In this document: one piece after another, positions 31,646-46,967 of the stretch
Layout: each line of letters begins with the position of its first letter
Position numbering within the stretch: the first letter of the stretch is position 1
Assembly (NCBI GenBank): GCA_024398835.1
Contig: JAKSIK010000009.1
Location: 1-64,000, forward strand
Reading direction: 5' to 3'
DNA: 64,000 nucleotides
Source: Fibrobacter sp.
GTDB lineage: Bacteria > Fibrobacterota > Fibrobacteria > Fibrobacterales > Fibrobacteraceae
The notes under the pieces: model-generated
Database searches by the model: none
What the model saw: the letters and a program-made list of their open reading frames with translations, nothing else
What the model was told of the DNA's origin: nothing
Program-made: the position numbers and the translations under genes

Positions 31646-33004
31646 TTACTTGTCCAAGGACATCACGAGAATTCTGGAATTCCGCTTGGTGTTGTAGTGG
31701 TCCCGCTTGCTCTTCGGCAAATCCTCGATGGAGCCATCTTCAAAACCAAAGTGGTAGAACCAATCCACCGCCTGAGTGGTAAGCAGGAACAACTTTTGGT
31801 AGCCCTTCATCCGGCCAACAGAAATGAGGTGCCGCACGATGGCGTCGCCAATGCCCGACTTGCGATAGTTGGCGCCCACGGCAATGCCAGCCACTTCGGC
31901 CATACCGTCTTCGAATTCATGAAGAGCGCCACAGCCATGAATGCTGTTGTCGATGGCGTACACCACATAGTCCTTGAGCTTTTCGGAAATGCTTTCCTGG
32001 GTTCTCGGCACCAGGTAGCCCTTGGCGATGTAATCCTGCATGACCCGAAGAATATCCGGGATGTCTTCGATGTTTGCGGGCCGGATACTGGAGTACTGGT
32101 TTGCGTACACCATGGTGCCATCGCCCCGAGCGCTGAAGACTTCTTGCAGCACGCTGCCCTGGAACTCACCGCTCAGCAAATGGACGCGGTTGGCGCCAGC
32201 CTCACAAGCGTGAATTGCATTCAAAAGGTAATCCATCTGGGCAAAATTCAACACGTCGGAATTGAGTTCCAAAAGTTCCTTGGCCTGATCCACATCCATA
32301 GCAGAAATCACGCCGCTGTCGGTGGGCTCCAGATACTTGGTGTTTTTGCCCGTCACAAGGCCTTTCAGCTTGATACCGTTCTCGTTACCGATGAAGAACA
32401 GTTTACCCACCTGAAGGTACTTGCAGAGTTCCGTTGCCAGTTCCGTACTGCTGATGTTGTAGGCGTGGCCCAGTTTATTCCAGCCAATGGGAGGAATGAT
32501 AGGCACAAATTTTTCATCCAGGAGTTGTTCCAGAATATCCCGCTGGACCCGCTCAATCTTGCCAGTCCGCATAAAATCCACGCCGCCAATGACGCCGAGA
32601 CTCCGGGCCAGAATCCAGTTGCCCTGAATGCCCCGCAAACCGCTTGCGGTAAGGTGACTCATAATCCGCTGGGCAACGCCAAGAGACGCCTGCTCAATGA
32701 GAGGCAGAGCTTCTTCGCTAGTTAGCCGGACTCCGTTGTGGAACTTGGATTCAATCTCCCAAGCTTTCAACTGTGCATCGATGCTGTTTCGCGTCCCGGG
32801 AACGATGATAATGCGTATGCCTGCCTTGTGAAGGAGGGCAATATCCCGCATGAGGACGGGGAACAACGGATGGTCCATCAGGCCGTCGTCAATCTTCAAA
32901 ATGAAAAGCTGGCCCTTGAACCGATCCACATAGCCAAACACTTCCCGGATGAAACCGGCAACTTCGAAGTGCTGGGAATTGAAATCAGATGCATTGTTGT
33001 TCAT
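31646..33004 (-). CDS. argA: Amino-acid N-acetyltransferase (N-acetylglutamate synthase)
   Basis: First step of arginine synthesis: acetylates glutamate with acetyl-CoA. The 452-residue protein has an N-terminal amino-acid-kinase-like domain (about 15-290; IIIVPGTRNSIDAQL, FIGNENGIKLKGLV) that senses arginine in the family, and a C-terminal GNAT domain (about 300-445; VAGIAVGANYRKSGIGDAI is the acetyl-CoA loop). A TTG two codons upstream would also start the frame; the ATG at 33004 is preferred, although no good SD is seen. Downstream genes folE and the glycogen synthase follow closely. Confidence 0.93.
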   Translation of the reverse strand: MNNNASDFNSQHFEVAGFIREVFGYVDRFKGQLFILKIDDGLMDHPLFPVLMRDIALLHKAGIRIIIVPGTRNSIDAQLKAWEIESKFHNGVRLTSEEALPLIEQASLGVAQRIMSHLTASGLRGIQGNWILARSLGVIGGVDFMRTGKIERVQRDILEQLLDEKFVPIIPPIGWNKLGHAYNISSTELATELCKYLQVGKLFFIGNENGIKLKGLVTGKNTKYLEPTDSGVISAMDVDQAKELLELNSDVLNFAQMDYLLNAIHACEAGANRVHLLSGEFQGSVLQEVFSARGDGTMVYANQYSSIRPANIEDIPDILRVMQDYIAKGYLVPRTQESISEKLKDYVVYAIDNSIHGCGALHEFEDGMAEVAGIAVGANYRKSGIGDAIVRHLISVGRMKGYQKLFLLTTQAVDWFYHFGFEDGSIEDLPKSKRDHYNTKRNSRILVMSLDK

Positions 33005-33111
33005 GGGCAAAAATATAGAATAGTGGCCACCACGCCGAGAAAATAGCGTTGGCGTTTTGCGTCTCTCCGCAATTTTGTTGTATTTTTGGAGGGTAAAATC
33101 AAGGAAGTTTT

Positions 33112-33993
33112 ATGAAAAAACAAATTCTATTGCCTTTTATTGCTGCCGCCGCCATGCTGTTTCCCGCCTGCTCCGGCGATAACGACAACTCTATTTCTTC
33201 CACAGATATTCCGCCAACTTCTAGCGAAGAAGCGGCTCCAGAGTCTTCCGACGCAAACTCCGGTGCAGATGGCACAAGTTCTTCAAGCATCAAATACTCA
33301 TACTATGGCGCTGAACTCACCGGAATAAAGCAGTTCAAGTATGGCCGCTTCGAAGCCCGCATGAAAATGGCTGCCATTTCTGGTTCCGTCAGTTCCATGT
33401 TCCTCTACTACGACAATTCCTGGATGGGTGATGGAGAAAAGTGGAATGAAATTGATATTGAAGTTCTAGGCAACAACTCAAAGGGTTTCCAGTCTAACAT
33501 TATCACGGGAACAGCCGAAAGTAGGATTACAGAAGAAGGCAAACACCCTCTGGAATTTGACGTTCGCGAAGACTACCACCTCTACGGCATGATCTGGACT
33601 CCAGATACTGTAATTTGGGAAATTGATAGCATACCCGTCCGTAAAGTTTCCCTCGGCGATACCAAGGGACAGATTAAGCACCTGAGCGAAGGCGGCACAC
33701 AGTCACTCCGCTTCAACCTCTGGGTTTCCAAAGACCCCAAATGGACAGGTAAATTCACCGGCGAAGGGCTCCCGGAAAAGCAGTATATCGACTATGTGCG
33801 CGTCTATTCCTATGACACCACAGCTAAGACTTTCACCCAAGAGTGGCAAGATGACTTTGATGGTGAAGATTTAAATCCCGAATACTGGCAAAACCAGAAC
33901 AGTTGGGATATGGAAGGCGTCACCTACCGTCGAGAAAACCTCTATGTGGAAGATGGCAAGGCCGTGCTGGTCCTAGATAGAGACCCACAGTAA
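33112..33993 (+). CDS. Circularly permuted GH16 lichenase (1,3-1,4-beta-glucanase), lipoprotein
   Basis: A 293-residue lipoprotein (lipobox FPAC, Cys20; Ser-rich tether about 21-58). The GH16 jelly roll is permuted: the catalytic motif WNEIDIEVLG (Glu113, Asp115, Glu117) comes early, while the strands that open ordinary GH16 enzymes (TFTQEWQDDFDGEDLNPEYW ...) lie at the C-terminus. The same order is known for the F. succinogenes lichenase. Segments FQSNIITG and LRFNLWVS also match that enzyme. Unlike it, no C-terminal PxSSSS repeats or basic tail are present, and this copy has a lipid anchor. Predicted to cut mixed-linkage cereal glucan. A bidirectional terminator follows. Confidence 0.92.
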   Translation: MKKQILLPFIAAAAMLFPACSGDNDNSISSTDIPPTSSEEAAPESSDANSGADGTSSSSIKYSYYGAELTGIKQFKYGRFEARMKMAAISGSVSSMFLYYDNSWMGDGEKWNEIDIEVLGNNSKGFQSNIITGTAESRITEEGKHPLEFDVREDYHLYGMIWTPDTVIWEIDSIPVRKVSLGDTKGQIKHLSEGGTQSLRFNLWVSKDPKWTGKFTGEGLPEKQYIDYVRVYSYDTTAKTFTQEWQDDFDGEDLNPEYWQNQNSWDMEGVTYRRENLYVEDGKAVLVLDRDPQ

Positions 33994-34033
33994 CAAGCCG
34001 CGCGAGTCTCAATAAACGCGCAAAGCGTACGAT

Positions 34034-34063
34034 AAAAGGCCCGGAAATAATTCCGAGCCTTTT
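34034..34063. terminator. Bidirectional terminator between the lichenase gene and pflB
   Basis: Stem AAAAGGCCCGGAA / TTCCGAGCCTTTT with one mismatch, loop ATAA, A- and T-rich ends. It lies between two convergent genes, 41 bp after the lichenase stop and 20 bp after the pflB stop. Confidence 0.8.
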
Positions 34064-34083
34064 AAATTTTGAAATCGTACCGA

Positions 34084-36345
34084 TTACAGCACGCCGTGAG
34101 CCTGGCGGGCAATCACATCCAGCTGCTGTTCGCGCGTGAGCTTGATGAAGCGAACGGCGTAACCAGAAACACGAATCGTGAAGTTCTGATATTCTTCCTT
34201 CTCCGGATGTTCCATGGCGTCCTTCAGCTTCTCCACACCAAAGACGTTCACGTTCAGGTGGTGGCTGCCCTTTCCGAAGTAGCCGTCCAACACCTGCATG
34301 AGCTTCATGGTCCGTTCCTCATCGTCATGACCGAGAGCGCTAGGATTGATGGTCTGGGTGTTGCTGATGCCATCCAGAGCATAATCGTAGGGCAGTTTCG
34401 CCACAGAGTTGAGGGAAGCGAGAAGACCGTTCTTCTCAGCGCCATAGCTGGGGTTAGCGCCCGGAGAGAGGGGCTCGCCAGCCTTGCGGCCATCGGGAAG
34501 CGTACCCGTAGCCTTACCATAAACAACGTTACTCGTAATGGTGAGGATACTGGTGGTCGGTTCAGAATTGCGATATGTAGGCGTATGACGTATCTTCTGG
34601 ATAAAGGTCTTCAAAAGCCACACGGCAATGTCATCGGCGCGGTCATCGTCATTTCCATAACGGGGGAAGTCGCCCTCTATTTCGAAGTTTTCAGCAAGGC
34701 CCGTAGCCGGATCGCGAATTACCTTCACCTTGGCGTACTTGATGGCGCAAAGGCTATCCACCACGTGGCTGAAACCTGCAATACCCGTCGCGAAAGTACG
34801 ACGCACATTGGTATCAATCAAAGCCATTTCTGCAGCTTCGTAATAATACTTGTCGTGCATGTAGTGGATGAGGTTTAGCGTGTTCACATACAAACGAGCA
34901 AGCCAGTCCATGTACAAATCAAACTTGTGCATCACCTCGTCGTAATCCAGGTATTCGCTGGTAATGGGCGGATATTCCGGACCCACCTGCACACCCTTGC
35001 AAATAGCCTCGTCGCGGCCACCGTTGATGGCGTAAAGGAGAGTCTTTGCCAAGTTGGCGCGGGCACCGAAGAACTGCATCTCCTTACCGGTCTGGGTTGC
35101 AGACACGCAGCAGCAGATGCTGTAGTCATCGCCCCAGATTGGGCGCATGGTTTCATCGTTCTCGTACTGGATGGCGCTGGTCTTCACGGAAATTTCTGCA
35201 GCGAACTTCTTGAAGTTTTCCGGCAGACGGGGGCTGTAAAGCACCGTCAGGTTGGGCTCCGGAGAGGGGCCCATGTTGATGAGGGTATGGAGAAAACGAT
35301 AGTCCGTCTTAGTCACCATGTGGCGGCCATCAGTACCGATACCGCCAACTTCCAGCGTAGCCCACACCGGGTCGCCGCTGAACAGTTCATTATAGCTGGT
35401 GATACGGGCAAACTTCACCATGCGAAGCTTCATCACAAAGTGGTCCACCAGTTCCTGAGCTTCCTCTTCCGTAAGAATGCCGGCCTTGATATCGCGGTTG
35501 AAGTAGATATCCAGGAAGGTAGACACGCGGCCCACGCTCATGGCGGCACCGTTCTGCGTCTTGATGGCGCCAAGGTAGCCGAAGTAGAGCCACTGGATAG
35601 CTTCGCGGGCATTCCTTGCAGGCTTGGAAATGTCATAGCCGTAAATCTTGGCCATGGCCTTCAGGCCTTCCAAAGCGCGAATCTGTTCCGCCAGTTCTTC
35701 ACGAAGGCGAACCGTCTCCTCGTTCATGTCCGCCTTGTCGCTAAGAGCCTTGTCCTTCTGCTTCTTCTCGATAAGGTAGTCCACGCCATAGAGGGCAACG
35801 CGGCGGTAATCGCCCACGATACGACCACGGCCATAAGTGTCCGGAAGACCCGTGATGATGTGGGCCTTACGGGCGGCGCGCATGTCCGGCGTATAGGCAT
35901 CAAACACAGCCTGGTTGTGAGTCTTGTGAATGTCCGTAAAGATGTGGTGCAGCTCTTCGCTAGGCGTATAGCCGTAATTCTTGCAACTTTCCTCCGCCAT
36001 CTTGATGCCGCCAAAAGGCATGAAGGCGCGCTTCAGAGGCTTGTCGGTCTGGAGGCCGACGACCTTTTCCAAATCCTTGGTACCTTCGGCAATGAAGCCT
36101 GCCGGATGACTGGTAAGGGTGGACACCACATCCGTGTCCATGTCCAGCACGCCGCCCTTGGCGATTTCCTGCTTCTGCAAATCCTGAACCTCATCCCACA
36201 ACTTCTTTGTTGCAGCCGTTGGACCGGCAAGGAAGGACTTGTCCCCATCATAAGGGACGTAATTCTTTTGGATGAACACCCGAACGTTGACTTCTTCTTT
36301 CCAACGCTGGCCTACAAAGCCATTCCATTCTTCTTTAACAACCAT
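34084..36345 (-). CDS. pflB: Formate acetyltransferase (pyruvate formate-lyase)
   Basis: Non-oxidative cleavage of pyruvate with CoA to acetyl-CoA and formate in anaerobic fermentation. The 753-residue glycyl-radical enzyme has the catalytic Cys pair in [26 protein letters not shown] and the C-terminal glycyl-radical loop [17 protein letters not shown]. The extra Cys before the pair is a small difference from the E. coli ACC order. GAGGAATT precedes the ATG. The activating enzyme gene pflA is not seen next to it. A strong promoter with a palindrome over the start point lies at 36465-36509. Formate and acetate are known Fibrobacter products. Confidence 0.96.
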
Positions 36346-36464
36346 AATTCCTCTTTTTCGCGGACAATGTCCGCACCATCTTTTTCTTGTTTTCCATTCA
36401 CAAATTTATGAAAAGAACCGGACCGCGACACCTAGTAAATCGCCACCCACGACCTTTCCCAATT

Positions 36465-36509
36465 ATTTGTAATCATTACAAATATACATTATAAATTAAA
36501 ATTTGTCAA
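36465..36509 (-). promoter_or_regulatory. pflB promoter with palindromic operator
   Basis: On the minus strand: -35 TTGACA (36504-36509), 17-bp spacer, -10 TATATT (36481-36486). A 19-bp near-perfect palindrome ATTTGTAATCATTACAAAT (36465-36483) overlaps the end of the -10 box and centres on the expected transcription start near 36474. A repressor bound there would block transcription. Sequence does not match the Rex consensus exactly; the regulator is unknown. Confidence 0.65.
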
Positions 36510-36597
36510 CATGAAAATCAATGGAATTTTTGCAACTCGTTGATTGTCATTGAATTATGCGTAGGGCCTTTGAAATTTAAGGCCCAATTGTTTCTTT

Positions 36598-36864
36598 TTA
36601 CAGTGCGAAATCGTACTTTTGGGTAAAGTCCTTGTCCACGCAGAAGGCGCTGCAGTTGACGCCGATTTTTGCCTTTGCAGCCTTGGACGTCGGAGCCTTG
36701 AAAGGTTTATCATAAACGCTTATTACCGTTCCAAATTCAAAGGCGATGTCTTTTTGTGCATAGGTCCCGCCATATTTACCCTTTCTGACAATTAAGCCAA
36801 TAGCGTTGGTTGATTCAATCCATTCGGATACGCTCATGACAAAGTTTGGCAAACCGGCTTGCAT
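36598..36864 (-). pseudogene. Truncated KilA-N domain gene fragment
   Basis: An 88-codon frame. Its first half (LPNFVMSVSEWIESTNAIGLIVRKGKYGGTYAQKDIAFEFG) aligns with the middle of the KilA-N protein at 37866-38666. The homology in frame extends upstream of the ATG (to about 36900) and stops abruptly after AFEFG. The last 40 residues are unrelated and were not recognised. The N-terminal part of the domain is missing. The fragment reads in the same frame as the RhuM-like gene, directly after its stop codon. Probably a deletion remnant joined to another gene end; translation is uncertain. Confidence 0.6.
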
Positions 36865-36906
36865 TTTAAAGTGGTCGAATTCGACTCCTTTAAACTTGTA
36901 TTTGTT

Positions 36907-37788
36907 TTATTTTCCGGACGACAACGCGACCATTTCCAGAAGTTGCTTTTTCGAGACTAGGTTCAGGACCGAGAACGCGGTCAATTTTTTCCCGAGTTCG
37001 TTGAGCGATGAGCCGACGTGATAAACGGTTTCGTCCACGATGATGAACCTGTCGTGAACATTCTGCATATTTTTGAGAATGACTGTCGGGAATTGGCGAT
37101 TCAGCCGATCTGCTTCTTCTTTCAGGTGCCGGTTCACATGACCAGAATAGACAAGCGCATTTACACCTGCAGATTTCTTGGCGACAAGCGAAAGCGCAAC
37201 ATCGTCCGCGAACGGGTCTATGACGACAACCTCCTCCTTCGCCAAACGGATGAGCCGCGCCGCAAATTCGTAGCCGCTCCACCAGGATTTTGCGTTCAGC
37301 ACGCCCTCGCTCGGCGGCAGGTTAGCCTTGACGAAAAAATCCACCTGCTTTTCGAGGAATTGGACGCGGGTGTCGAGAGTTTCAAGCTTGTTTTCGTGCG
37401 AGACAAGCCGCTGGTTTACGGACCCACCCTTGAGAAGATGCTCCTTGAGAATTTGATTCGCCCATTGACGAAAGCGTGTGCCTTGAATAGATTTGACGCG
37501 ATAGCCGACAGAAATAATAACATCTAAATTGTATAGTTTTTGCTTTCTATGAACAACCCTTTTGCCTTCTTGGGCAACTTGTAAGAATTCCTTACAAGTT
37601 CGATCTTGGTACAATTCCTCTTCAGTATAGATGTTTTTTATATGCAAAGTGATGTTTTGAGGAACTGTTCCAAACAATTCCGCCATCTGCGCCTGCGTGA
37701 GCCACACCGTCTCGTTTTCCAGGCGAACTTCGAGGTGGAATTCGCCGCCTTCCGGCTGGTACACGATGATTTCGTTTTTCTCTTCCAT
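36907..37788 (-). CDS. RhuM-family protein with C-terminal PLD-like domain
   Basis: A 293-residue protein. The N-terminal ~115 residues match the virulence protein RhuM family (IVYQPEGGEFHLEVRLENETVWLTQAQMAELFG, TVPQNITLHIKNIY, YNLDVIISVGYRVKS, FRQWANQILKEHL). A coiled linker follows, then a C-terminal domain with VHDRFIIVDETVYHVGSSLNELGKK, which resembles a PLD-like fold often joined to such proteins; the usual catalytic HxK is not complete. RhuM proteins occur in phage, pathogenicity and defence islands; the biochemical role is unknown. GGAG lies 5 nt before the ATG at 37788. Its upstream region is a copy of that of the KilA-N gene. Confidence 0.82.
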   Translation of the reverse strand: MEEKNEIIVYQPEGGEFHLEVRLENETVWLTQAQMAELFGTVPQNITLHIKNIYTEEELYQDRTCKEFLQVAQEGKRVVHRKQKLYNLDVIISVGYRVKSIQGTRFRQWANQILKEHLLKGGSVNQRLVSHENKLETLDTRVQFLEKQVDFFVKANLPPSEGVLNAKSWWSGYEFAARLIRLAKEEVVVIDPFADDVALSLVAKKSAGVNALVYSGHVNRHLKEEADRLNRQFPTVILKNMQNVHDRFIIVDETVYHVGSSLNELGKKLTAFSVLNLVSKKQLLEMVALSSGK

Positions 37789-37843
37789 ATTCACTCCTTT
37801 GTGTTACAAGCTGAAAAAACACAAAACAAATGCACAAATGTGC
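37786..37843. repeat. Duplicated upstream region, copy 1 (RhuM gene)
   Basis: A 58-bp segment nearly identical to 38664-38720 (about two differences). It includes the start codon, the AAAGGAG ribosome site and, at its far end, the inverted repeat GCACA-AA-TGTGC (37832-37843). The same element in front of two regulator-like genes points to shared control, possibly autoregulation. Confidence 0.85.
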
Positions 37844-37865
37844 GAAATTTTCAAAACAGTCAAGG

Positions 37866-38666
37866 CTACTTCAAAAGTTTTCGTCCCTCGATGTTTTCTA
37901 GAACCGTCATCTGTGAAATGGCAATTTGGTTCAGCTTGACAAGGCGTTCGCTTTGAGGAAGGCCTTCGTTAATCAATACGGAGTTCAGCGATTCCATGTT
38001 GCTGAGGCAAATCAGCTGATTGACCGTCGCATAATCACGAACATTGCCTGGCAACGTGGAATTTGACTCACGCCACTCCGCCGCAGTAAAGCCGAACAGA
38101 GCCATGTTCAAAACGTCGGCTTCACTTGCGTACACAATGGACGTCTCCCGCGAAGTAAGCGTCGCAGGGATCAGGTTCTGCTTGATGGCGTCCGTGTGGA
38201 TGCGATAGTTTATTTTCGAGAGTTCCCGCTTGACGGACCAGCCGAGCTCTGCCTGCTCAGCCGCCTTGAGACGCTGGAATTCCTTGACAATGTAGATTTT
38301 GAACTCTGCGCTAATCCACATTGCGAATTCAAAGGCGATGTCCTTGTGCGCGTATGTTCCTCCATAACGGCCTGCCTTGGAGATAATTGATATTGCTCCC
38401 GCACGTTCAACGAATTCCTTAACGCTTATCTTGAAACTGTTTAAACCAGACTGATTTGTAATTGTGGCGAATTCGCCATAATTAAAACCTGAATTGTAAA
38501 CTTTCTCCCAAATACCAATGTATTCCAGGGTGTTTCGGTTTCTTAGCCAATCCGCGATAAAGAAGGCGCCGTCTTTGGCTTTTAACATATCCGTCAACGA
38601 GATGTAATCCTCTCCATTTACTTTTTGAACGGATATTTCCGTGTTCATGACTTCGATCTTGCTCAT
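37866..38666 (-). CDS. KilA-N domain protein
   Basis: A 266-residue protein with an N-terminal KilA-N DNA-binding domain (about residues 10-120: ISLTDMLKAKDGAFFIADWLRNRNTLEYIGIWE, GLNSFKISVKEFVERAGAISII, GRYGGTYAHKDIAFEFAMWIS). A conserved helical C-terminal half follows (about 125-266; IYASEADVLNMALFGFTAAEWR-type segment). KilA-N proteins come from phages and mobile or defence loci and are thought to bind DNA. SD GGAG at 5 nt from the ATG at 38666; a GTG two codons upstream is unlikely. It is followed by the RhuM-like gene and a truncated KilA-N copy on the same strand. Confidence 0.85.
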   Translation of the reverse strand: MSKIEVMNTEISVQKVNGEDYISLTDMLKAKDGAFFIADWLRNRNTLEYIGIWEKVYNSGFNYGEFATITNQSGLNSFKISVKEFVERAGAISIISKAGRYGGTYAHKDIAFEFAMWISAEFKIYIVKEFQRLKAAEQAELGWSVKRELSKINYRIHTDAIKQNLIPATLTSRETSIVYASEADVLNMALFGFTAAEWRESNSTLPGNVRDYATVNQLICLSNMESLNSVLINEGLPQSERLVKLNQIAISQMTVLENIEGRKLLK

Positions 38667-38720
38667 ATTCACTCCTTTGCGTTACAAGCTGAAAAACACA
38701 AAACAAATGCACAAATGTGC
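38664..38720. repeat. Duplicated upstream region, copy 2 (KilA-N gene)
   Basis: Counterpart of 37786-37843, one base shorter. It carries the same ribosome site and the same 12-bp inverted repeat GCACAAATGTGC (38709-38720). Confidence 0.85.
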
Positions 38721-38912
38721 TAGTGAACAAAATATAACTAAAATTAAACAAAAAAGCAACAGACCGCGCAATTTTCTTGAAAAAGTCGGCGCCGCCCAAG
38801 ATGCGGTTACAAATGCCGCCGCGAGCGATGCAATTTGCCATCGCTCAAAATTCATGCGTTTTGACATCTACTGACATGCAGATTAGTTATATTTTTATCG
38901 TACATAAAGAGT

Positions 38913-38970
38913 TTTGCTCTTGTTCCTCACCTGAAACTTCGACAATTTCTGAACAGGGAATAAGGCGACG
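38913..38970. repeat. Diverged direct repeat, copy A
   Basis: Shares TTTGCTCTT, then CACCTGAAACTTCGACA and TTTCTGAACA plus a GAATAAG-type end with copy B 275 bp downstream; about nine of ten bases match over the core. A hairpin TGCGGT...ACCGCA (38979-39000) follows. Confidence 0.75.
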
Positions 38971-39187
38971 CTCACGTCTGCGGTGGTTTACTCTACCGCA
39001 TCGTTCTACCACATTGGTATTCTGTATATCGGTTTGCCCGTGTGTAGCGCGACCTTTTGGGGCGTGGGTTGTTTGCGTTTATTTGTTCATGGCAGTCGAA
39101 GGCCTAAGGTGGGTAAGCGCATTCAGCCTCACGCCTTTTTCATTTATATCGTGTGGAAGTTTCGCGACAGGAGCGGCTCTTGTTGGG

Positions 39188-39245
39188 TTTGCTCTTATTC
39201 GCACCTGAAACTTCGACACTTTCTGAACACGAAATAAGACAAACG
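39188..39245. repeat. Diverged direct repeat, copy B
   Basis: Second copy of the element at 38913-38970. It is followed by hairpin CCTAT-GATTG-ATAGG (39254-39268). Copy B ends about 150 bp before the methyltransferase start. Confidence 0.75.
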
Positions 39246-39352
39246 TTCGGCGACCTATGATTGATAGGCCGTGCTGTTTACGCGTATCCACGCGCGCATA
39301 CGGGCGTTTTCTTTATTTGTTCTGACATCGCGGTTTCTTGCTCCCGAATGAG

Positions 39353-39368
39353 AGTGAACTCGTTCACT
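39353..39368. promoter_or_regulatory. Palindrome before the methyltransferase gene
   Basis: AGTGAAC-TC-GTTCACT, a 16-bp perfect inverted repeat 26 bp before the chosen ATG. Many restriction-modification operons are autoregulated at such sites, by a controller protein or by the methyltransferase. It could equally form an RNA hairpin in the leader. Confidence 0.5.
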
Positions 39369-39394
39369 TTCAACGCGAGGAGCGAGAGACATAC

Positions 39395-40555
39395 ATGGCG
39401 GGCCGTGGCACAAAGTCTGGAAAGAAAAAGGAAAAATCGAGTTTCCGGTTCATTGACTTATTTGCTGGAATTGGCGGATTTCACACTGCAATGCACAGTG
39501 TTGGCGGAAAGTGTGTGTTTGCTAGTGAATGGGATAAGAACGCCCGCATTACTTATGAAGAAAATTATAAAAAAATAGAGCCAAAACTTTTCCAAAAAGA
39601 TAAAGAAGGGAACTATAAATTTTTCAACGCAGATATCAATGATGTTGAAATGAATAACATTCCTGACTTTGATGTTTTGTGTGGTGGATTTCCTTGCCAG
39701 GCGTTTTCCATTGCAGGCAAACGAAAAGGCTTTGAAGACACGCGAGGTACTTTATTCTTCAATATCGCCGCAATTGTTAATCATAAAATTCAGATTGGTA
39801 AAAAGCCCAAAATTCTTTTTTTGGAGAATGTAAAGGGTTTAAAAAATCATAACCATGGAAAAACATTAGAAACGTTACTTCGTGTTTTGAAAAAAGATTT
39901 AAAATACGAAGTTCGTACCGCCGTTTTAAACGCAAAGTATTTTGGTGTTCCTCAAAATAGAGAACGCTTGTTTTTCGTGTGTTGGGACAAGAAACAATGC
40001 TGTGCGGAAGATTTTTCTTTCCCTCTTGGACTTGATGCAAAATTAAAGCCTTTATTCGAAAAAGAAAAACTGAACAAATGTATTGCAACCAAAGTCAGCG
40101 ATATCTTTGAACCTGCATCTAAAATACCTGAAAAGAATACCATCAGTGATAAGATGTGGATTGGCCATCAGCTGAGAAAAAAACGTAATCAAGAAAATGG
40201 CAAGGGTTTTGGATATTCCTTATTTTCCGGAGATAGCGTTTATTGCAGTACAATCTCGGCTCGATACTGGAAAGATGGTAGCGAAATTTTAATTGATCAG
40301 TCTGCTCTCGGCAAAAATCCACGAAAACTTACACCCGTTGAAGCTGGACGTTTACAAGGATATAAGATTATCGGCAACGGATGGGAGAACCCAGAATCAA
40401 AGCATAATCAAAATAATCAAAAAAATTTCCCAGAGATGAAAATTGTCGTCTCGGATAAAGAAGCATTTCATCAATTCGGCAATAGTGTTGCTGTTCCTGT
40501 AATTAGAACATTGGCAGGGGAAATTAGAAAACAACTGCTAGAAGGACAGGAGTGA
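39395..40555 (+). CDS. DNA (cytosine-5) methyltransferase
   Basis: A 386-residue C5-cytosine methyltransferase, expected to mark host DNA. Motifs are in canonical order: FIDLFAGIGGFHTA (motif I, AdoMet), GGFPCQAFSIAGKRKGF (motif IV, catalytic Cys101), LFLENVKGL (motif VI), QNRERLFFV (motif VIII), and HQFGNSVAVPVIRTLA (motif X). The segment between VIII and X is the target recognition region, short here; the site cannot be read from sequence. A TTG far upstream opens the frame, but GAGAG before the ATG at 39395 is preferred. It is the first of five genes on the plus strand, AT-richer than the housekeeping genes around, which suggests horizontal transfer. Confidence 0.95.
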   Translation: MAGRGTKSGKKKEKSSFRFIDLFAGIGGFHTAMHSVGGKCVFASEWDKNARITYEENYKKIEPKLFQKDKEGNYKFFNADINDVEMNNIPDFDVLCGGFPCQAFSIAGKRKGFEDTRGTLFFNIAAIVNHKIQIGKKPKILFLENVKGLKNHNHGKTLETLLRVLKKDLKYEVRTAVLNAKYFGVPQNRERLFFVCWDKKQCCAEDFSFPLGLDAKLKPLFEKEKLNKCIATKVSDIFEPASKIPEKNTISDKMWIGHQLRKKRNQENGKGFGYSLFSGDSVYCSTISARYWKDGSEILIDQSALGKNPRKLTPVEAGRLQGYKIIGNGWENPESKHNQNNQKNFPEMKIVVSDKEAFHQFGNSVAVPVIRTLAGEIRKQLLEGQE

Positions 40556-40560
40556 AAGCG

Positions 40561-41391
40561 ATGCCTTATATCACTCAAATTATAAAAGATTTGAATGCAG
40601 TATTGCAATATGCAAAGCATCGTTTTCAAAATGAATTTAAACAACAGGAATTTGAACTAAATGACACCTTTAAAAATTCATTTTTTAATTTCCTAAAAGA
40701 AAAAAATTGCGAAATAGAATTTTTTAGACATACATCAGTCATCACGACAAAAGCTAATCAAAATATTTTTATTGCGAATCAGTGGTTTGTGATAGCGTCA
40801 TACATGGTTGATTTCTGTACAGAGTTGTTAACATACAAGGAACTGTATTTAAAAATTTGTACCAGAATTCATCGAAGCCCAGAACAACTTGCAAAAAAGC
40901 TAAAGGTTTCAAATGATTTTTCGACAAAGCCTCTATTTGTACAGAGCGCAAAAGAGATGTTTAACGAAATCTACAAGGACGAGAGAGCCTCTATTGAAGC
41001 TGCTGGATACTTATGGAATTTTATAAGTAATTATTCCTGGTGGGCCGGAAGCAAAACTGTTGATCGAAATGATTTTTATGTTTCGCCAATTTTAAATTCT
41101 CTTAATGTAGTAAATGTTAGCCATGGGTATGTCGCCGACATTGTATTTGCATATTCAACAAATTTTTCATTAAGAAAAAATGTTGAAAGTGTGAGTAGTT
41201 TCACTATAGGAGCAAAGCTGAATGCTTATACTCCAGATGCCGAAGAATCCGCATCTTATAAAAAAGCAGAAAAAATTGATTCGTCTTTGAGTTTGAACGA
41301 TGCGTCAACTGCATATCTTGCTCAACCTACATCTACACCCAAAATATCAATCAGTGCAGCAAGTCTTGATCGCTTTAAAAGAAATGGTTAA
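40561..41391 (+). CDS. Unknown protein of the methyltransferase/SNF2/GHKL operon
   Basis: A 276-residue soluble protein, not recognised. It looks mostly alpha-helical: an N-terminal helical, Phe/Lys-rich half (about 1-110), a middle segment around FNEIYKDERASIEAAGYLWNFISNYSWWAG, and a C-terminal Ser/Ala-rich tail (about 225-276). No signal, membrane helix, nuclease motif or Walker motif was seen. A GTG at 40552 overlapping the methyltransferase stop is possible, but GGAG lies 8 nt before the ATG at 40561. Its position between methyltransferase and helicase genes, with almost no gaps, implies a dedicated component, for example a specificity, adaptor or control subunit; this is inference. Confidence 0.75.
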   Translation: MPYITQIIKDLNAVLQYAKHRFQNEFKQQEFELNDTFKNSFFNFLKEKNCEIEFFRHTSVITTKANQNIFIANQWFVIASYMVDFCTELLTYKELYLKICTRIHRSPEQLAKKLKVSNDFSTKPLFVQSAKEMFNEIYKDERASIEAAGYLWNFISNYSWWAGSKTVDRNDFYVSPILNSLNVVNVSHGYVADIVFAYSTNFSLRKNVESVSSFTIGAKLNAYTPDAEESASYKKAEKIDSSLSLNDASTAYLAQPTSTPKISISAASLDRFKRNG

Positions 41392-41396
41392 TTGTG

Positions 41397-43247
41397 ATGA
41401 TGGAATGGAAAATAGAAGATGATGTGTTGATTTCCTTTAAGGATGGAAATAAATTTTATCCATCCGCTCAGGAAATTTTTTCGCATGTGAAAGAAGGTAA
41501 TCCACCGCTTTCTCAAATTAGATTTTCCTCTTTGGGATGCAATTTGGTCGCATCTTTGCAATCAAGTGAAAATGGCCTCGTTCTTTCTATTGATGCAGAA
41601 AAAAGAGGCATAAAGAAACCCTTGCCGATTGTAAATGGTAAGCTTGTTGATCATGTTATTCTTTGTAATACATGGTATCATGTCAACAAGAATCTTGACG
41701 ATTTGGAGGGTTGTTTAGCAGAAGCTGCTGTTTATGAACAAGGGATAATATCAAGGTCCCAATATGTCAAAATAAAGCAATATGAGTTTACTCATCAAGT
41801 AAAACTTTTTGATGATTCTGTTAAGTTTGACTCGAATAGTCAAAAGAATGGTTTGGATATTAATCCAAGTGAAATTTCTTTGCGAGCAACATTGTTTGAA
41901 TACCAGCATGTAGGATTTAATTGGATTTGCAATACGCTTGAAGGCCTTTCTGGTTGTGTCCTTGGCGATGAAATGGGCCTTGGCAAAACGATGCAGATAA
42001 TTGCGACAATGTTGTTTTTTCAACAAAAAAATAAGGGGCCTTTTTTGATTGTAGCCCCAATTTCACTACTCGCGAATTGGAAGCGTGAATGTAATAAATT
42101 TGCCCCTACTCTAAATGTTTATGTTCATCATGGTTCAAATAGAATAAGCAACTACAAATGTTTGGAACCTTATGATGTCGTTGTGACATCGTATTCCACG
42201 GTAATCAATGACTTGCCAATGTTGAATATGGTAAGATGGTATTTGGCCGTTTTGGACGAGGCTCAAAACATAAAGAATCCTGATAGTATTCGTAAAAAAA
42301 CTTGTTGCAGAATAAACTCAGAAAAATGTATTGCAGTGACAGGAACCCCGTTTGAAAATCATATAACGGATATTTGGTCGATTCTAGATTTTGTCTATCC
42401 AGGGTTGCTTGGGAATGTTGAGTCTTTTAGGAAATGTATTTCTGATGATGTTGAAGGTGGTAAAAAACTAGAACCGATTTTATCCGCGATGATGGTCAGA
42501 AGACGTGTGAAAGAAGTTGCTGACGAACTACCTCCGCGAATAGATATTGAACAACCTCTCCAGATGTCTGAAAAAGAAGGAAAAACTTATTCAACGCTTT
42601 TGTCAGAGGCAAGGGGCGAAGCTGAATCGGGAAATCCTGGATTTGGGGTTCTCCAGAAATTAAGGATGTTTTGTACGCATCCACATCTAATTGATGATGA
42701 ATGTGGAAATCCATTTGACGATTCGGTAAAATTTCAACGTTTCTGCGAACTCGTTGAGGAAATTATTGAAAAAAGGGAAAAAGTCATTGTTTTCACCTCC
42801 TATAAAAAAATGTTCGATGTTTTTACAAGTTATTTGAACAAAAATATAGGAGTAAAAAATTGGTCAATTAATGGCGAAACTGAAATTTCGTTAAGACAGA
42901 AAATTGTGGATGATTTCAACCAATATGATGGCAGCGCTGTATTATTCCTAAATCCTAGAGCAGCAGGGACTGGGTTGAACATAACAGGCGCAAACCATGT
43001 AATTCACTACAATCTTGAATGGAACCCATCTTTGGAAGATCAGGCTTCAGCACGTGCTTACAGAAGAGGGCAAGAAAAAACAGTATTTGTTTATCGCCTC
43101 TATTACCAAAATACCGTTGAGCAAATTATTCAGGAACGTATTAACCGAAAAAGACAGATTGCAGAAAATGCCGTTATTGGCACGGAAGGCTTTGATAATG
43201 ATTATCAGGATGTAATTGACGCATTGAACTTAGTCCCAAATTTTTAA
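41397..43247 (+). CDS. SNF2-family ATPase / helicase
   Basis: A 616-residue SWI2/SNF2 (superfamily 2) ATP-dependent DNA translocase. An N-terminal ~165-residue part of unknown fold precedes two RecA-like domains. Visible motifs: Walker A in DEMGLGKTMQ (about 191-200), motif II DEAQ (about 288), motif III region TGTPFENH, and in the second lobe VFTSYKKMFDVF, LNPRAAGTGLNITGANHVIHYNLEWNP and the motif VI segment QASARAYRRGQ. DEAQ and the SNF2-type C-lobe separate it from type I/III restriction helicases. Starts at 41394 (GTG), 41397 and 41400 (ATG) are all possible. It presumably moves along DNA for the restriction complex. Confidence 0.93.
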   Translation: MMEWKIEDDVLISFKDGNKFYPSAQEIFSHVKEGNPPLSQIRFSSLGCNLVASLQSSENGLVLSIDAEKRGIKKPLPIVNGKLVDHVILCNTWYHVNKNLDDLEGCLAEAAVYEQGIISRSQYVKIKQYEFTHQVKLFDDSVKFDSNSQKNGLDINPSEISLRATLFEYQHVGFNWICNTLEGLSGCVLGDEMGLGKTMQIIATMLFFQQKNKGPFLIVAPISLLANWKRECNKFAPTLNVYVHHGSNRISNYKCLEPYDVVVTSYSTVINDLPMLNMVRWYLAVLDEAQNIKNPDSIRKKTCCRINSEKCIAVTGTPFENHITDIWSILDFVYPGLLGNVESFRKCISDDVEGGKKLEPILSAMMVRRRVKEVADELPPRIDIEQPLQMSEKEGKTYSTLLSEARGEAESGNPGFGVLQKLRMFCTHPHLIDDECGNPFDDSVKFQRFCELVEEIIEKREKVIVFTSYKKMFDVFTSYLNKNIGVKNWSINGETEISLRQKIVDDFNQYDGSAVLFLNPRAAGTGLNITGANHVIHYNLEWNPSLEDQASARAYRRGQEKTVFVYRLYYQNTVEQIIQERINRKRQIAENAVIGTEGFDNDYQDVIDALNLVPNF

Positions 43248-43262
43248 GAAGGAGCATGAGGA

Positions 43263-44864
43263 ATGAACAACAATCAAGTACAGGAAATTGAATTACAACC
43301 AGATCCAGCGCGTATTGTAAACGGTTTAAGAGATACCGGTTATAATTTCAACACCGCAATTGCGGATATTGTTGATAATTCAATTGCGGCTAAGGCGACG
43401 CGTGTTGATATCAATATTGTAATGAATCCGAAGTTAGAGGTTGCTGTATATATTGCAGATAATGGCATTGGCATGGATTATAATGGCCTGCAAAATGCAA
43501 TGAAATATGGCTCTAAGGAACGGTCGGAAAAGAAGAGTCTTGGAAAATTCGGTCTGGGTTTAAAAACGGCATCCACAGCATTTTGCAAGCAGTTGTCCGT
43601 ATTGTCTAGAAATGCTGCTGATTCAGAGATAATCAAGGTTCAGTGGGATTTGGATTATATTAGCCGCGTTGGATTATGGAAACTTCGGATTGTTGAAGCA
43701 TCTGCAGATGAATTAGATTTGTTTGATGAAACTGCGAATAATTGCAGTGGTACTTTGGTTGTATGGGATAAAATCGACAGATTGTTGAAGGATTACAAAA
43801 GTAATTCCGCAGCAAAAAAAGCTCTTGATAAAAAAATCGATGAGTTAAAATTCCATATAGCGATGGTGTTTCAACGTTTTCTTGATGAAAATGATAATCG
43901 TGCAGAAAATGTAGAAATAAGAGTGAATGGCGAAAAAATTGAAGCATGGGATCCGTTCTGTGTTAAGGAACAAAAAACTTCCTTACTACAGCGAGAAACT
44001 GTTCCTGTTGAGATTGGTGATGAGGGAAATTTCTCCTTTGATGTCGCGGCGTATGTAATTCCTAGAAAATCGGAATTTAGTTCCAAGGAAGTTGCTGATA
44101 AAGCTAGAGGAAATAATGATTTCCAGGGATTCTATGTTTATCGTGAAAATAGACTTATTCATTTTGGTGATTGGCTGGGATTCTTTACGAAAGAACCGCA
44201 TTATTCTCTATTGCGTGTGGAATTTTCCTTTGGGCAGGAATTAGATGAACTTCTAAATGTTGATATAAAAAAATCAAGAATCCTGTTGATATCAGAATTG
44301 TCTGATTATCTAATTAGATTCCTGAATGCTCCCCGTCGTGAAGCACAAAGAAGGTATAGAGAAGGACAGACGAGTGATATTCACAAACCGGGTAAAAGCG
44401 TTCATGAATCCTCAAATTCGACTATCGAGGCAAAAGGAGCTGAAGTTCAAGAATCGAGATTGACGCCGACCGGAAAACCGAATGAGGCTTTGGTTGAAAA
44501 TTCCAATGGTTCTTTTACTAAAAAAATTACCATCGGAAATGCAGAATCTCCGAAGCAGTGTCGTGTGGTTCCTGTAGAAACCATTGACGGAAACGCGCTG
44601 TGGGAGCCGGCTTTGATTGATGGAAAAAATGCTGTAAGAATTAACGAAGGTCATGATTTCTATAAAAAGGTATACGGCCCTATTCTTTCTAAGGGTGTCG
44701 TTGTAGAAGGCTTGGATGATTTGCTTTGGGCGCTTGCAGAAGCAGAAAATTCGACCTGTAATCAAGCGACAATTGAAAATTACGAGGAAATGCGTTATAT
44801 GGTTTCGCGCATTCTTCGCAAACTTGTCGCTGATTTGCCAGATCCTGCATTGGATGAAAATTAA
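43263..44864 (+). CDS. GHKL (MORC/MutL-like) ATPase
   Basis: A 533-residue protein with an N-terminal GHKL ATP-binding domain: motif I AIADIVDNSIAAKA (Asp35 in the place of the usual Glu, Asn39), motif II IADNGIGMD (about 65-72), motif III LGKFGLGLKTAS (about 93-104). An S5-like transducer region follows (to about 360), then a Ser/Thr-rich linker and a C-terminal domain with KVYGPILSKGVVVEGLDDLLWALAEAE. Bacterial MORC/MutL-like ATPases of this kind occur in restriction-modification operons and may clamp DNA in an ATP-dependent way. SD elements GGAG and GAGG precede the start. It lies 15 bp after the SNF2 gene. Confidence 0.88.
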   Translation: MNNNQVQEIELQPDPARIVNGLRDTGYNFNTAIADIVDNSIAAKATRVDINIVMNPKLEVAVYIADNGIGMDYNGLQNAMKYGSKERSEKKSLGKFGLGLKTASTAFCKQLSVLSRNAADSEIIKVQWDLDYISRVGLWKLRIVEASADELDLFDETANNCSGTLVVWDKIDRLLKDYKSNSAAKKALDKKIDELKFHIAMVFQRFLDENDNRAENVEIRVNGEKIEAWDPFCVKEQKTSLLQRETVPVEIGDEGNFSFDVAAYVIPRKSEFSSKEVADKARGNNDFQGFYVYRENRLIHFGDWLGFFTKEPHYSLLRVEFSFGQELDELLNVDIKKSRILLISELSDYLIRFLNAPRREAQRRYREGQTSDIHKPGKSVHESSNSTIEAKGAEVQESRLTPTGKPNEALVENSNGSFTKKITIGNAESPKQCRVVPVETIDGNALWEPALIDGKNAVRINEGHDFYKKVYGPILSKGVVVEGLDDLLWALAEAENSTCNQATIENYEEMRYMVSRILRKLVADLPDPALDEN

Positions 44865-44866
44865 TT

Positions 44867-45700
44867 ATGCTGTGCAAAGATCTTCAGAAATATTTGGAAG
44901 ATGTTTTTTCAATGCCCTTCTGCGTTTCAGTTGAAACGCAGGATGGGGATGATGTGTATTTGTCTTACCCTAAAAATGAAGATCAGGCTTTTTTTGAAGT
45001 TCATACTAGAATAAAGAATAATATTCGAGTGGTTGTTGAAATTGAACCGCAGAAATACGCCGCACAATTACTTCGTGAAATGTCATACGCACCTAATGAT
45101 AAGAAAAAAATATTTCTTTCCTATTATGAGGCTCTTAGGTGTAAGCGAGTTAAATTTGAACTCAAGATAAACGGTACTTTATGCGACCAGATTGACGATT
45201 CCCTTTGGAAAGATTCTTGGAAGCAGTTGTATTGTAGGTTTACCCGAGTTCCCGTAATAGATTTAAATGACGAATACGACGAATCTTTTGTTGTATGTGA
45301 ATGGACAAAGCAGGCGTATACTTTGTTTTTTGCACTTTTAAATATTGTGGATGCCGAATTTGAATATGGCGGGAAAGAGGAAGGTAATTGTTTCCAAGTT
45401 GTCGCGAATAGGTACGAACGTAATCCTATAAACCGTGAGTTATGTCTTGCAAAAAAAGGTTATGCTTGCGGTATATGTGGTTTTGATTTCAAAACCGTTT
45501 ATGGAATTATTGGACAAAAATTCATTCATGTTCATCACCTAATTCCTGTATCAAAAATGGGACCAAATTATGTTGTGAATCCAGTGAAGGATTTGATTCC
45601 GATATGTCCCAATTGTCACGCAATGTTGCATAGGAAAGATCCGCCTTATACCCCAGAGGAAATGCGAGACATTCTTGCCATAAATCAGATAGACTCTTGA
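44867..45700 (+). CDS. HNH endonuclease of the restriction operon
   Basis: A 277-residue protein. The C-terminal ~85 residues form an HNH nuclease with structural zinc ligands: CGIC (201-204), FIHVHHLIP (catalytic His about 223/224), and CPNCHAMLHRK (247-257) with final Asn/His positions. The N-terminal ~185 residues are not recognised; they look alpha/beta and may bind DNA or sense the GHKL/SNF2 partners. The start lies 2 bp after the GHKL stop, so translation is probably coupled. It is the likely DNA-cutting subunit of the five-gene system. No terminator hairpin is obvious after it. Confidence 0.88.
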   Translation: MLCKDLQKYLEDVFSMPFCVSVETQDGDDVYLSYPKNEDQAFFEVHTRIKNNIRVVVEIEPQKYAAQLLREMSYAPNDKKKIFLSYYEALRCKRVKFELKINGTLCDQIDDSLWKDSWKQLYCRFTRVPVIDLNDEYDESFVVCEWTKQAYTLFFALLNIVDAEFEYGGKEEGNCFQVVANRYERNPINRELCLAKKGYACGICGFDFKTVYGIIGQKFIHVHHLIPVSKMGPNYVVNPVKDLIPICPNCHAMLHRKDPPYTPEEMRDILAINQIDS

Positions 45701-45965: not shown

Positions 45966-46967
45966 TTATTTAATCTTCCATTCCAGAGTCTTGCCGGCGG
46001 CGAGGGGAACGACACCGTTCACGATTTCTGGAACAGTCCATTTTTCCTGCACGACTTCAATCTTTTTCGTGGTGCGCGGGAGGCCGTAGAAGTCGGCGCC
46101 GAATCCTGCGATGAAGTCCGGGAGTTTGTCCAAGTGGCCAGCCTTCTCGAACTCCTGAACCAGAAGCGGAATGGCCACGGGAGCGCTGTAGACGCCGGCG
46201 GCACCGCAGGGGCATTCTTTTTTGCCCTGCTGATGAGGCGCCGAGTCTGTCCCGAGGAAGAACTTGGGAGATCCACTGAAAGCTGCCTCACGAATAGCCG
46301 CCCGATCTTCGGGACGCTTGGGCAGAGGCTTGCAGAAGTGATGAGGCCGGAGGGCATCACCCACCACATCATCCAGCGTCATCATCAAATGATGCACCGT
46401 GAAGGTAGCCGCCACATTGGCAGGGAGACGCTTCACCGCTTCCACAGATTTTGCGCTGGAAAGATGTTCAAACACGATGCGGAGTTTCGGGAACTTTTCC
46501 GCGAGAGTTTCTACACGCTTGATGAAGGCGGGTTCACGGTCCAGACAAAATTCGCCGGGTTCCTCACCATGAACGCAAAGCACCAGGCCAAGCTTTTCCA
46601 TCATGGCAACCACAGGGAAGATTCCCTCAAAATCGCTGATGCCATCCTGACTGTTGGTGGTAACGCCTGCAGGGTAATACTTGCCAGCCACAACGCCCAC
46701 CGCCATCATGTCCTTCAAATCCTGTTCCGTATAATTTGGATTCAGCTTGAAAGTCATGAGGGGTTCAAAATCCGGGCGCACATCGGCAGCGGCAGCGAGA
46801 ATCTCTTTCTTGTACTGCGCAATGGCTGCGGCACTGGTCATGGCAGGCACGGTGTTCGGCATAATGATGGCACGACCAAACTGGGAAACCAAATCCCGGA
46901 CATAGCCCGGCATCAAATCGCCCTGGCGAAGGTGTGCATGAAAATCATCTGGAAGAGGAAGAAACAT
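45966..46967 (-). CDS. pyrC: Dihydroorotase
   Basis: Third step of pyrimidine synthesis: cyclises carbamoyl-aspartate to dihydroorotate in the cytoplasm. The 333-residue protein is of the short E. coli PyrC type: metal site DFHAHLR, carbamylated Lys in GKYYPAG, metal His in VCVHGE-type LCVHGEE and VFEHLSS, and catalytic Asp in LGTDSAPH. No SD is visible: the start codon is preceded by a run of ATTATGAATT-type repeats, so translation may be leaderless, rely on AT-rich leader, or be weak. It marks the right edge of the accessory island. Confidence 0.95.
   Translation of the reverse strand: MFLPLPDDFHAHLRQGDLMPGYVRDLVSQFGRAIIMPNTVPAMTSAAAIAQYKKEILAAAADVRPDFEPLMTFKLNPNYTEQDLKDMMAVGVVAGKYYPAGVTTNSQDGISDFEGIFPVVAMMEKLGLVLCVHGEEPGEFCLDREPAFIKRVETLAEKFPKLRIVFEHLSSAKSVEAVKRLPANVAATFTVHHLMMTLDDVVGDALRPHHFCKPLPKRPEDRAAIREAAFSGSPKFFLGTDSAPHQQGKKECPCGAAGVYSAPVAIPLLVQEFEKAGHLDKLPDFIAGFGADFYGLPRTTKKIEVVQEKWTVPEIVNGVVPLAAGKTLEWKIK

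What the first reader, a model, noticed from the sequence alone, without database searches (positions are those of the whole stretch)
39395..45700. Five-gene methyltransferase / unknown / SNF2 / GHKL / HNH operon: a probable restriction or anti-phage system
Seen: five plus-strand genes with gaps of 2-15 bp, AT-richer than their surroundings, coding a C5 DNA methyltransferase, an unrecognised 276-residue protein, an SNF2 ATPase, a GHKL ATPase and an HNH nuclease. Known: MORC/MutL-like GHKL ATPases linked to SWI2/SNF2 ATPases, methylases and nucleases have been proposed as unusual restriction-modification systems (Iyer, Abhiman and Aravind, 2008), but their mechanism is little studied. Inference: the methyltransferase marks self DNA; SNF2 and GHKL proteins form a two-motor sensing and loading machine that licenses HNH cleavage of unmodified DNA.
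Basis: partly seen in the sequence, partly recalled or inferred. Interest (0 to 1): 0.85.

Follow-up and report, generated by a model that had tools for sequence, protein, structure and literature searches.

The report
Plug-in recognition for MORC-type restriction
This rumen-type bacterium (Fibrobacter) carries a five-gene DNA-defence operon of a kind predicted in 2008 but, as far as the papers read here show, never tested, and its previously unrecognised second gene most likely makes the part that reads the target DNA site, a part that other bacteria bolt onto quite different DNA-cutting machines.

Summary
Five tight plus-strand genes (39395-45700, GC 0.35-0.39 against about 0.5 in the flanks) encode a C5 methyltransferase, an unannotated protein, an SNF2 ATPase, a MORC-type GHKL ATPase and an HNH nuclease. 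The same five genes recur in Fibrobacterota, Bacteroidota and Bacillota. The machine is a member of the MORC/SNF2/HNH restriction-modification (RM) operons predicted by Iyer, Abhiman and Aravind (2008).

The new part is gene 2. It is a separate protein here, but a homologous domain is fused to the N-terminus of McrB/LlaJI-type AAA+ subunits in six other loci, each with a C5 methyltransferase; in LlaJI the corresponding subunit is the site-specific DNA binder. In related MORC operons an EcoRII-N (B3) protein fills the slot, never both. Methyltransferases move freely between effector types, and their target-recognition regions follow gene 2. I conclude that gene 2 is an exchangeable target-recognition subunit, with a conserved C-terminal tail as probable docking peptide. 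Nothing was tested experimentally. In passing: the operon begins with a hairpin leader that stands before DNA-methyltransferase genes of many unrelated RM systems across Fibrobacter.

The parts
39319..39394 (+). RM leader: perfect palindrome AGTGAACTCGTTCACT (in 39350-39373) inside an extended hairpin that buries the ribosome-binding site of the methyltransferase gene
   Evidence: Fold -33.1 kcal/mol, z -4.7; same palindrome 5' of the MTase in the other Fibrobacter copies of this operon whose MTase start is on the contig and 5' of other RM methyltransferases
39395..40555 (+). C5-cytosine DNA methyltransferase (P0001)
   Evidence: PF00145 259 bits; PCQ and ENV motifs in the sequence; 80% identical to the MTase of an AAA+/LlaJI-type system in another Fibrobacter
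40552..41391 (+). Gene 2 (P0002), proposed target-recognition subunit; ATG at 40561 is the likelier start. Core about residues 8-242, disordered linker, conserved C-terminal tail ISISAASL
   Evidence: No family match; homologous domain fused to McrB-like AAA+ proteins; AlphaFold pLDDT 81, no fold match; tail present only in free-standing members
41394..43247 (+). SWI2/SNF2 ATPase (P0003)
   Evidence: PF00176 201 bits, PF00271 76 bits; DEMGLGKT and LDEAQ motifs in the sequence
43263..44864 (+). MORC-type GHKL ATPase (P0004) with S5 domain
   Evidence: PF13589 108 bits; MORC2 among best solved relatives; MORC signature GhXhhpXXRhl read as GFYVYRENRLI, nearly invariant in the family
44867..45700 (+). 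HNH nuclease (P0005): alpha/beta N-terminal domain 1-160, flexible linker, zinc-type HNH domain 186-260
   Evidence: PF01844 33 bits; EcoKMcrA HNH best solved relative by sequence and Z 7.0 over 84 residues; model pLDDT 80

Best explanation
A restriction-modification system built on a prokaryotic MORC machine with a plug-in target-recognition subunit. The C5 methyltransferase marks a short target on host DNA. Gene 2 (P0002) binds the same target when it is unmethylated and, through its C-terminal tail, recruits the SNF2 ATPase. The SNF2 ATPase works on the DNA at the bound site and promotes closure of the ATP-dependent MORC dimer on DNA. The MORC clamp then recruits or licenses the HNH protein, which cuts. 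The logic resembles MutS-MutL-MutH (recogniser, GHKL clamp, nuclease), with a sequence-specific recogniser in place of the mismatch reader. Supported here by comparative evidence: gene content, intact motifs, RM character, gene 2 as specificity module. Inferred only: recognition of unmethylated DNA, order of assembly, tail docking, clamp loading, double-strand cleavage.
For: (1) In 22 loci with readable context, gene 2 or its domain has two kinds of setting: a separate protein beside SNF2+MORC+HNH (16 loci, one cut by a contig end), or the N-terminal domain of a McrB/LlaJI-type AAA+ protein followed by a nuclease, either RE_LlaJI (L071, L077) or DUF2357-PDDEXK_7 (L072, L076, L079); L078 has the AAA+ part and a partner without a Pfam match. 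A C5 MTase is present in every locus where the flank is complete. (2) In LlaJI, the McrB-like R1 subunit with a unique N-terminal half is the site-specific DNA binder (PMC1459862). (3) The gene 2 tree splits cleanly by effector (1 change, support 98/95), but the MTase tree needs 5 changes (at least 4 forced by well-supported branches; shuffled mean 5.4): closely related MTases serve both effectors, so both should act at the same site, and the shared part is gene 2. (4) MTases of the Bacillota-type gene 2 loci resemble Dcm/EcoRII-N-type MTases slightly more in the catalytic part (59.5 vs 54.9%) but P0001-type MTases in the target-recognition region (62.7 vs 48.1%; column bootstrap of the reversal 0.0002). 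(5) In 34 SNF2+MORC loci, EcoRII-N or gene 2 is present in 16 each, both in none, neither in 2 (Fisher 7e-8, loci not independent); the two profiles are unrelated. EcoRII-N, too, lives a second life fused to a nuclease (EcoRII, L086). (6) The operon starts with a leader otherwise found before MTase genes of other RM systems.
Against: No experiment. P0002 has no recognised DNA-binding fold, so DNA binding is inferred from context. Many relatives are from metagenome-assembled genomes. Catalytic-region trees also put the gene 2 MTases on one side of a branch (98% of bootstraps), so point (4) rests on similarity and not on a proven domain swap. Points (3) and (5) use related sequences and collections gathered with gene 2 or MORC as bait. 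The HNH domain is closest to McrA-like, modification-dependent nucleases, which leaves a modification-sensing role open.
Confidence: 0.72

Rival explanations
1. Gene 2 is a scaffold or adaptor that links a DNA-bound effector to its motor, and site choice lies elsewhere, e.g. in the SNF2 N-terminal region or the HNH N-terminal domain.
For: The gene 2 tree follows the effector, as an adaptor would; helical fold without known DNA-binding relatives; L087 and L015 have the motor set without gene 2 or EcoRII-N.
Against: The same domain serves SNF2/MORC/HNH, AAA+/LlaJI and AAA+/DUF2357 machines that share no other non-MTase part; the unrelated EcoRII-N, a known DNA-reading domain, takes its place; MTases are shared across effectors.
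Confidence: 0.17
2. A modification-dependent (type IV-like) system: the complex attacks foreign modified DNA and the methyltransferase has another role.
For: HNH domain nearest to EcoKMcrA and other mREase_IV models; McrB-type relatives include methyl-dependent McrBC.
Against: Cognate C5 MTase in every complete locus; LlaJI-type systems restrict unmethylated sites (PMC1459862); type IV systems need no MTase.
Confidence: 0.08
3. Not defence: a MORC/SNF2-based DNA-topology or silencing module of a mobile element.
For: Eukaryotic MORC proteins compact DNA and silence transposons (abstract of PMC8277788); relatives lie on plasmids and viral contigs.
Against: Nuclease gene kept in nearly every complete locus; RM-type partners, Vsr and EcoRII-C next door; RM-type leader.
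Confidence: 0.03

Closest known systems
MORC-SWI2/SNF2 predicted RM operons (type 2 of Iyer, Abhiman and Aravind 2008, PMC2292703)
   Same: MORC GHKL+S5 ATPase, SNF2 helicase, HNH nuclease, cytosine methylase; P0004 carries the MORC-defining motif
   Different: They report a VP1/RAV (B3, EcoRII-N type) DNA-binding protein in some; here an unrelated gene 2 takes that place, a variant not mentioned in the parts of that paper read here (parts 1 and 2 of 4)
LlaJI-type RM (McrB-like R1 plus R2 nuclease; PMC1459862)
   Same: C5 MTase; site-specific N-terminal domain; homologues of gene 2 act as that domain in L071 and L077
   Different: No AAA+ GTPase and no LlaJI nuclease in the window; one MTase and not two, which fits a symmetric target
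EcoRII / Dcm
   Same: EcoRII-N is the part exchanged for gene 2 in sister operons; MTases are distant relatives of Dcm
   Different: Different recognition region in the MTase (39% identical to Dcm there); no EcoRII nuclease in the window
MZA (MzaB)
   Same: GHKL ATPase of the same broad group (171 bits PADLOC, 215 bits NCBIfam)
   Different: Far below the NCBIfam cut-off of 850; no Z1 protein or AIPR gene in the operon
GHKL-Shedu VcSduA (PMC12137116)
   Same: GHKL ATPase shown to control a nuclease in phage defence
   Different: One fused protein of the paraMORC3 type with a PD-(D/E)XK nuclease

Membership tests
MORC-SWI2/SNF2 RM operon (Iyer et al. 2008, type 2) | GHKL + S5 ATPase with motif GhXhhpXXRhl | tested here: met
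   GFYVYRENRLI at residues 289-299, most positions invariant over 13 relatives
MORC-SWI2/SNF2 RM operon (Iyer et al. 2008, type 2) | SWI2/SNF2 superfamily II ATPase in the operon | tested here: met
   PF00176/PF00271; kept in all complete relatives
MORC-SWI2/SNF2 RM operon (Iyer et al. 2008, type 2) | HNH or EcoRII-like nuclease in the operon | tested here: met
   PF01844
MORC-SWI2/SNF2 RM operon (Iyer et al. 2008, type 2) | DNA methylase, mostly cytosine | tested here: met
   PF00145
MORC-SWI2/SNF2 RM operon (Iyer et al. 2008, type 2) | VP1/RAV (B3, EcoRII-N) DNA-binding protein (reported in some, so not obligatory) | tested here: not met
   No EcoRII-N or B3 match for gene 2; profiles unrelated
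MORC-SWI2/SNF2 RM operon (Iyer et al. 2008, type 2) | Restriction of DNA lacking the cognate mark | not testable with these tools
   Needs phage or plasmid challenge; not shown for any member in the papers read
LlaJI / McrBC-like RM | McrB-like AAA+ GTPase and LlaJI or McrC nuclease | tested here: not met
   None among the five window proteins; present in gene 2 relatives L071 and L077
MZA | MzaB above the curated cut-off, with Z1 and AIPR partners | tested here: not met
   215 bits against 850; no such partner among the five proteins
DISARM | DrmA, DrmB, DrmC with a methyltransferase | tested here: not met
   Only DrmD and DrmMII models match, through the shared helicase and MTase domains
Zorya type I | ZorA, ZorB, ZorC with ZorD | tested here: not met
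   ZorD models match only in the helicase core; no ZorA-C match among the families shown

The most novel reading that the evidence does not exclude
SNF2-MORC-HNH is a general ATP-driven restriction effector that accepts unrelated sequence-reading subunits (the EcoRII-N B3 domain, or the new gene 2 family). The gene 2 family is an undescribed sequence-specific DNA-recognition domain, without a recognised fold, that plugs into at least three different nuclease machines while keeping one target class shared with its methyltransferase.
Probability: 0.55. Interest if true: 0.75.

Novelty: new variant of a known kind. Interest (0 to 1): 0.62.

Why it matters
Prokaryotic MORC operons were proposed as RM systems in 2008 from gene neighbourhoods, with no step-by-step mechanism. 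Naming the part that most likely chooses the site gives a direct test: one small protein, one methyltransferase and a predicted shared target. If it holds, MORC ATPases, which in eukaryotes act in gene silencing, would have a bacterial form with a defined loading signal, and gene 2 would be a portable DNA-recognition domain used by MORC/SNF2/HNH, LlaJI and AAA+/DUF2357 restriction machines.

Tried and rejected
P0002 against Pfam, PADLOC, PHROGs, the PDB by sequence and (as a profile) again: nothing; the NCBIfam hit (lipoprotein, 18.6 bits against a cut-off of 80) was ignored. Fold search of the P0002 model: no match with Foldseek E under 0.001, best Z 4.3; this shows neither a new fold nor the absence of a B3 fold. 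P0002 relatives in plasmids and viral contigs: none. HNH N-terminal domain: only middling, scattered matches (capping protein, type III chaperones, phage MotA DNA-binding domain; Z up to 8.4), not used. MZA, DISARM and Zorya were considered and rejected. Methylation motif: the MTase recognition region differs from Dcm (39%), so no site is claimed. Rfam: no match in the operon or in five leader loci. Two searches centred on a locus failed for a formal reason and one literature search returned only unrelated papers.

Full report
WHAT IS THERE. The five ORFs are intact and in the stated order on the plus strand: C5 DNA methyltransferase 39395-40555, unannotated protein 40552-41391 (more likely starting at the ATG at 40561), SNF2 ATPase 41394-43247, GHKL ATPase 43263-44864, HNH nuclease 44867-45700. 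The stretch is AT-rich (GC 0.35-0.39) with reversed GC skew between flanks near 0.5. Right of the operon, the dihydroorotase-like gene and at least 2.5 kb beyond are collinear with seven other Fibrobacter genomes, and similarity stops at 45966-45975, where the operon region begins; the left flank (33001-39400) has no match in the same stretches. So the operon sits at a variable site beside conserved genes.

PROTEINS. The GHKL protein carries the motif that defines MORC proteins (GhXhhpXXRhl, PMC2292703) as GFYVYRENRLI, and its best solved sequence relatives include human MORC2. The HNH domain is nearest to EcoKMcrA in sequence. Gene 2 has no family.

CONSERVATION. Among 168 genomes of the phylum, gene 2 relatives were found in 8, all in this genus. 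The window and six others hold the five genes in the same order (in one the MTase is truncated by the contig end); the eighth (L025/L077) holds MTase + a gene 2 domain fused to an AAA+ protein + a LlaJI nuclease. A scan of genome contigs gave 23 loci in Fibrobacterota, Bacteroidota and Bacillota. MORC proteins of this type are rare: 3 of 395 Bacteroidota and 1 of 398 Bacillota genomes at E 1e-90, each count including the genome used as centre.

TWO RECOGNITION MODULES FOR ONE MACHINE. On plasmids of Rhizobium, Marinobacter, Sphingomonas, Fuscovulum, Pseudomonas and Agrobacterium, in three other genomes (L055, L056, L086) and on seven viral contigs (L088-L094), the SNF2-MORC-HNH set comes with a Dcm-like MTase, mostly Vsr, and a small EcoRII-N (B3) protein (PF09217 in L056). 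In the window type the slot is filled by gene 2. Over 34 such loci: 16 EcoRII-N, 16 gene 2, none both, two neither (L015, L087). Gene 2 and EcoRII-N profiles show no relation (hhalign probability 0.2%). EcoRII-N is the effector-binding, DNA-reading part of EcoRII (established knowledge); L086 carries a complete EcoRII-N/EcoRII-C enzyme next door. By position and exclusivity gene 2 does the same job.

THE SAME MODULE ON OTHER MACHINES. In six loci the gene 2 domain is the N-terminus of an AAA+ protein of McrB type followed by a nuclease gene: RE_LlaJI in Anaerotignum and one Fibrobacter (L071, L077), DUF2357-PDDEXK_7 in three Bacteroidota (L072, L076, L079), unassigned in L078 (AAA_5 in L071, L076, L077, L078 and L079 above the Pfam cut-off; the AAA matches in L072 are below it but PADLOC gives 180 bits to a candidate defence family). 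In LlaJI the McrB-like subunit binds the site specifically, and its N-terminal half is unique (PMC1459862).

SPECIFICITY FOLLOWS GENE 2. The gene 2 tree separates cleanly by effector (1 change), whereas the MTase tree mixes effectors (5 changes, 4 or more forced): the MTase of the Fibrobacter AAA+/LlaJI locus lies among the SNF2-type MTases of the genus, and a Prevotella AAA+-type MTase is sister to a Bacteroidaceae SNF2-type MTase. An MTase that can serve both machines implies that both read the same site. In addition, gene 2-linked MTases of the Bacillota type are slightly closer to Dcm/EcoRII-N-linked MTases in the catalytic part (59.5 vs 54.9% identity; bootstrap interval of the difference just includes zero) but clearly closer to P0001-type MTases in the recognition region (62.7 vs 48.1%), a reversal that column bootstrap puts at 0.0002. 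The catalytic tree alone does not force a swap, so this is support and not proof.

STRUCTURE. AlphaFold gives gene 2 a confident core (8-242; mean pLDDT 81 for the whole) of helices with a small sheet, then a disordered stretch ending in a short helix. The last residues (ISISAASL-like) are conserved in the free-standing members aligned, while the linker before them is not, and they are missing from fused members: the pattern expected of a docking peptide. No confident fold match.

MECHANISM. Most likely: gene 2 binds the unmethylated target, tail-docked SNF2 acts on the DNA, MORC closes on DNA with ATP, the HNH protein is licensed and cuts; P0001 methylation blocks the first step. RM character and the role of gene 2 are supported comparatively; all later steps are inferred from the families (SNF2 translocases; GHKL clamps as in MutL and MORC). 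VcSduA shows that a GHKL ATPase can control a defence nuclease (PMC12137116).

COMPARISON. Membership in the 2008 MORC-SNF2 RM group is met on every obligatory feature that can be tested by sequence; MZA, LlaJI, DISARM and Zorya are not met. New are the identity of gene 2 as a recognition module, its second life in AAA+-type systems, and its exclusivity with EcoRII-N.

LEADER. A perfect palindrome lies in the leader just 5' of the MTase start. Allowing one mismatch it occurs in 38 of 80 Fibrobacter genomes (58 sites) and never in the reversed control. 53 of 54 distinct sampled sites lie directly before a gene recognisable as a DNA methyltransferase; the 16 representatives scanned are all methyltransferases of C5, EcoRI-type, N6_N4 or HsdM families, and the others were assigned by similarity or by their C5 motifs. 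In the window and in an EcoRI-type case the RNA folds with the ribosome-binding site buried (z -4.7 and -4.6); a third leader does not stand out (z -1.2). The consensus hairpin shows no two-sided compensatory changes, so an RNA and a DNA-operator reading remain open. The leader ties this operon to RM regulation independently of its gene content.

Noticed in passing
window 39250-39394 and Fibrobacter loci L120-L154, L163-L182: A conserved leader (about 150 nt in most copies) with the palindrome GAGAGTGAACTCGTTCACTTTC stands before DNA-methyltransferase genes of unrelated RM systems (C5, EcoRI-type, N6_N4, HsdM) across Fibrobacter: 58 sites in 38 of 80 genomes, 53 of 54 sampled distinct sites before an MTase gene. 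GCTCC upstream can pair with the ribosome-binding site GGAGC. No Rfam match. Candidate genus-wide RM control element.
   Followed up: partly
G000 contig C3 near 51732 (L118, L120): A second copy of the leader in the same genome precedes an EcoRI-type adenine methyltransferase, followed by a gene that looks like a DUF262 protein (by eye).
   Followed up: partly
window 38928-38964 and 39202-39238: 37-bp direct repeat CACCTGAAACTTCGACANTTTCTGAACANG, 92% identical, upstream of the operon; also conserved upstream of related operons.
   Followed up: no
window 36598-38672, minus strand: KilA-N/RhuM-like genes with a truncated second copy (36598-36864) next to the operon; judged by eye only.
   Followed up: no
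P0004 residue 35 and family alignment A4: The residue at the GHKL catalytic-glutamate position is an invariant aspartate (ADIVDNS) in all 13 MORC relatives aligned.
   Followed up: no
L087 and L015: SNF2-MORC loci with neither EcoRII-N nor gene 2; L087 has a longer SNF2 N-terminus and an EcoRII-C enzyme, L015 an unassigned 257-residue protein: possible further recognition modules.
   Followed up: partly
L064, L065, L068, L069, L071: Gene 2 of Bacillota carries a conserved extra N-terminal domain of about 110 residues (motif NMRDEFDPYFDNGR), shared between SNF2-type and LlaJI-type loci.
   Followed up: no
L012 8989-10601: The Sphingomonas melonis plasmid copy of the MORC gene is split into two overlapping ORFs, a likely broken or misread copy.
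   Followed up: no
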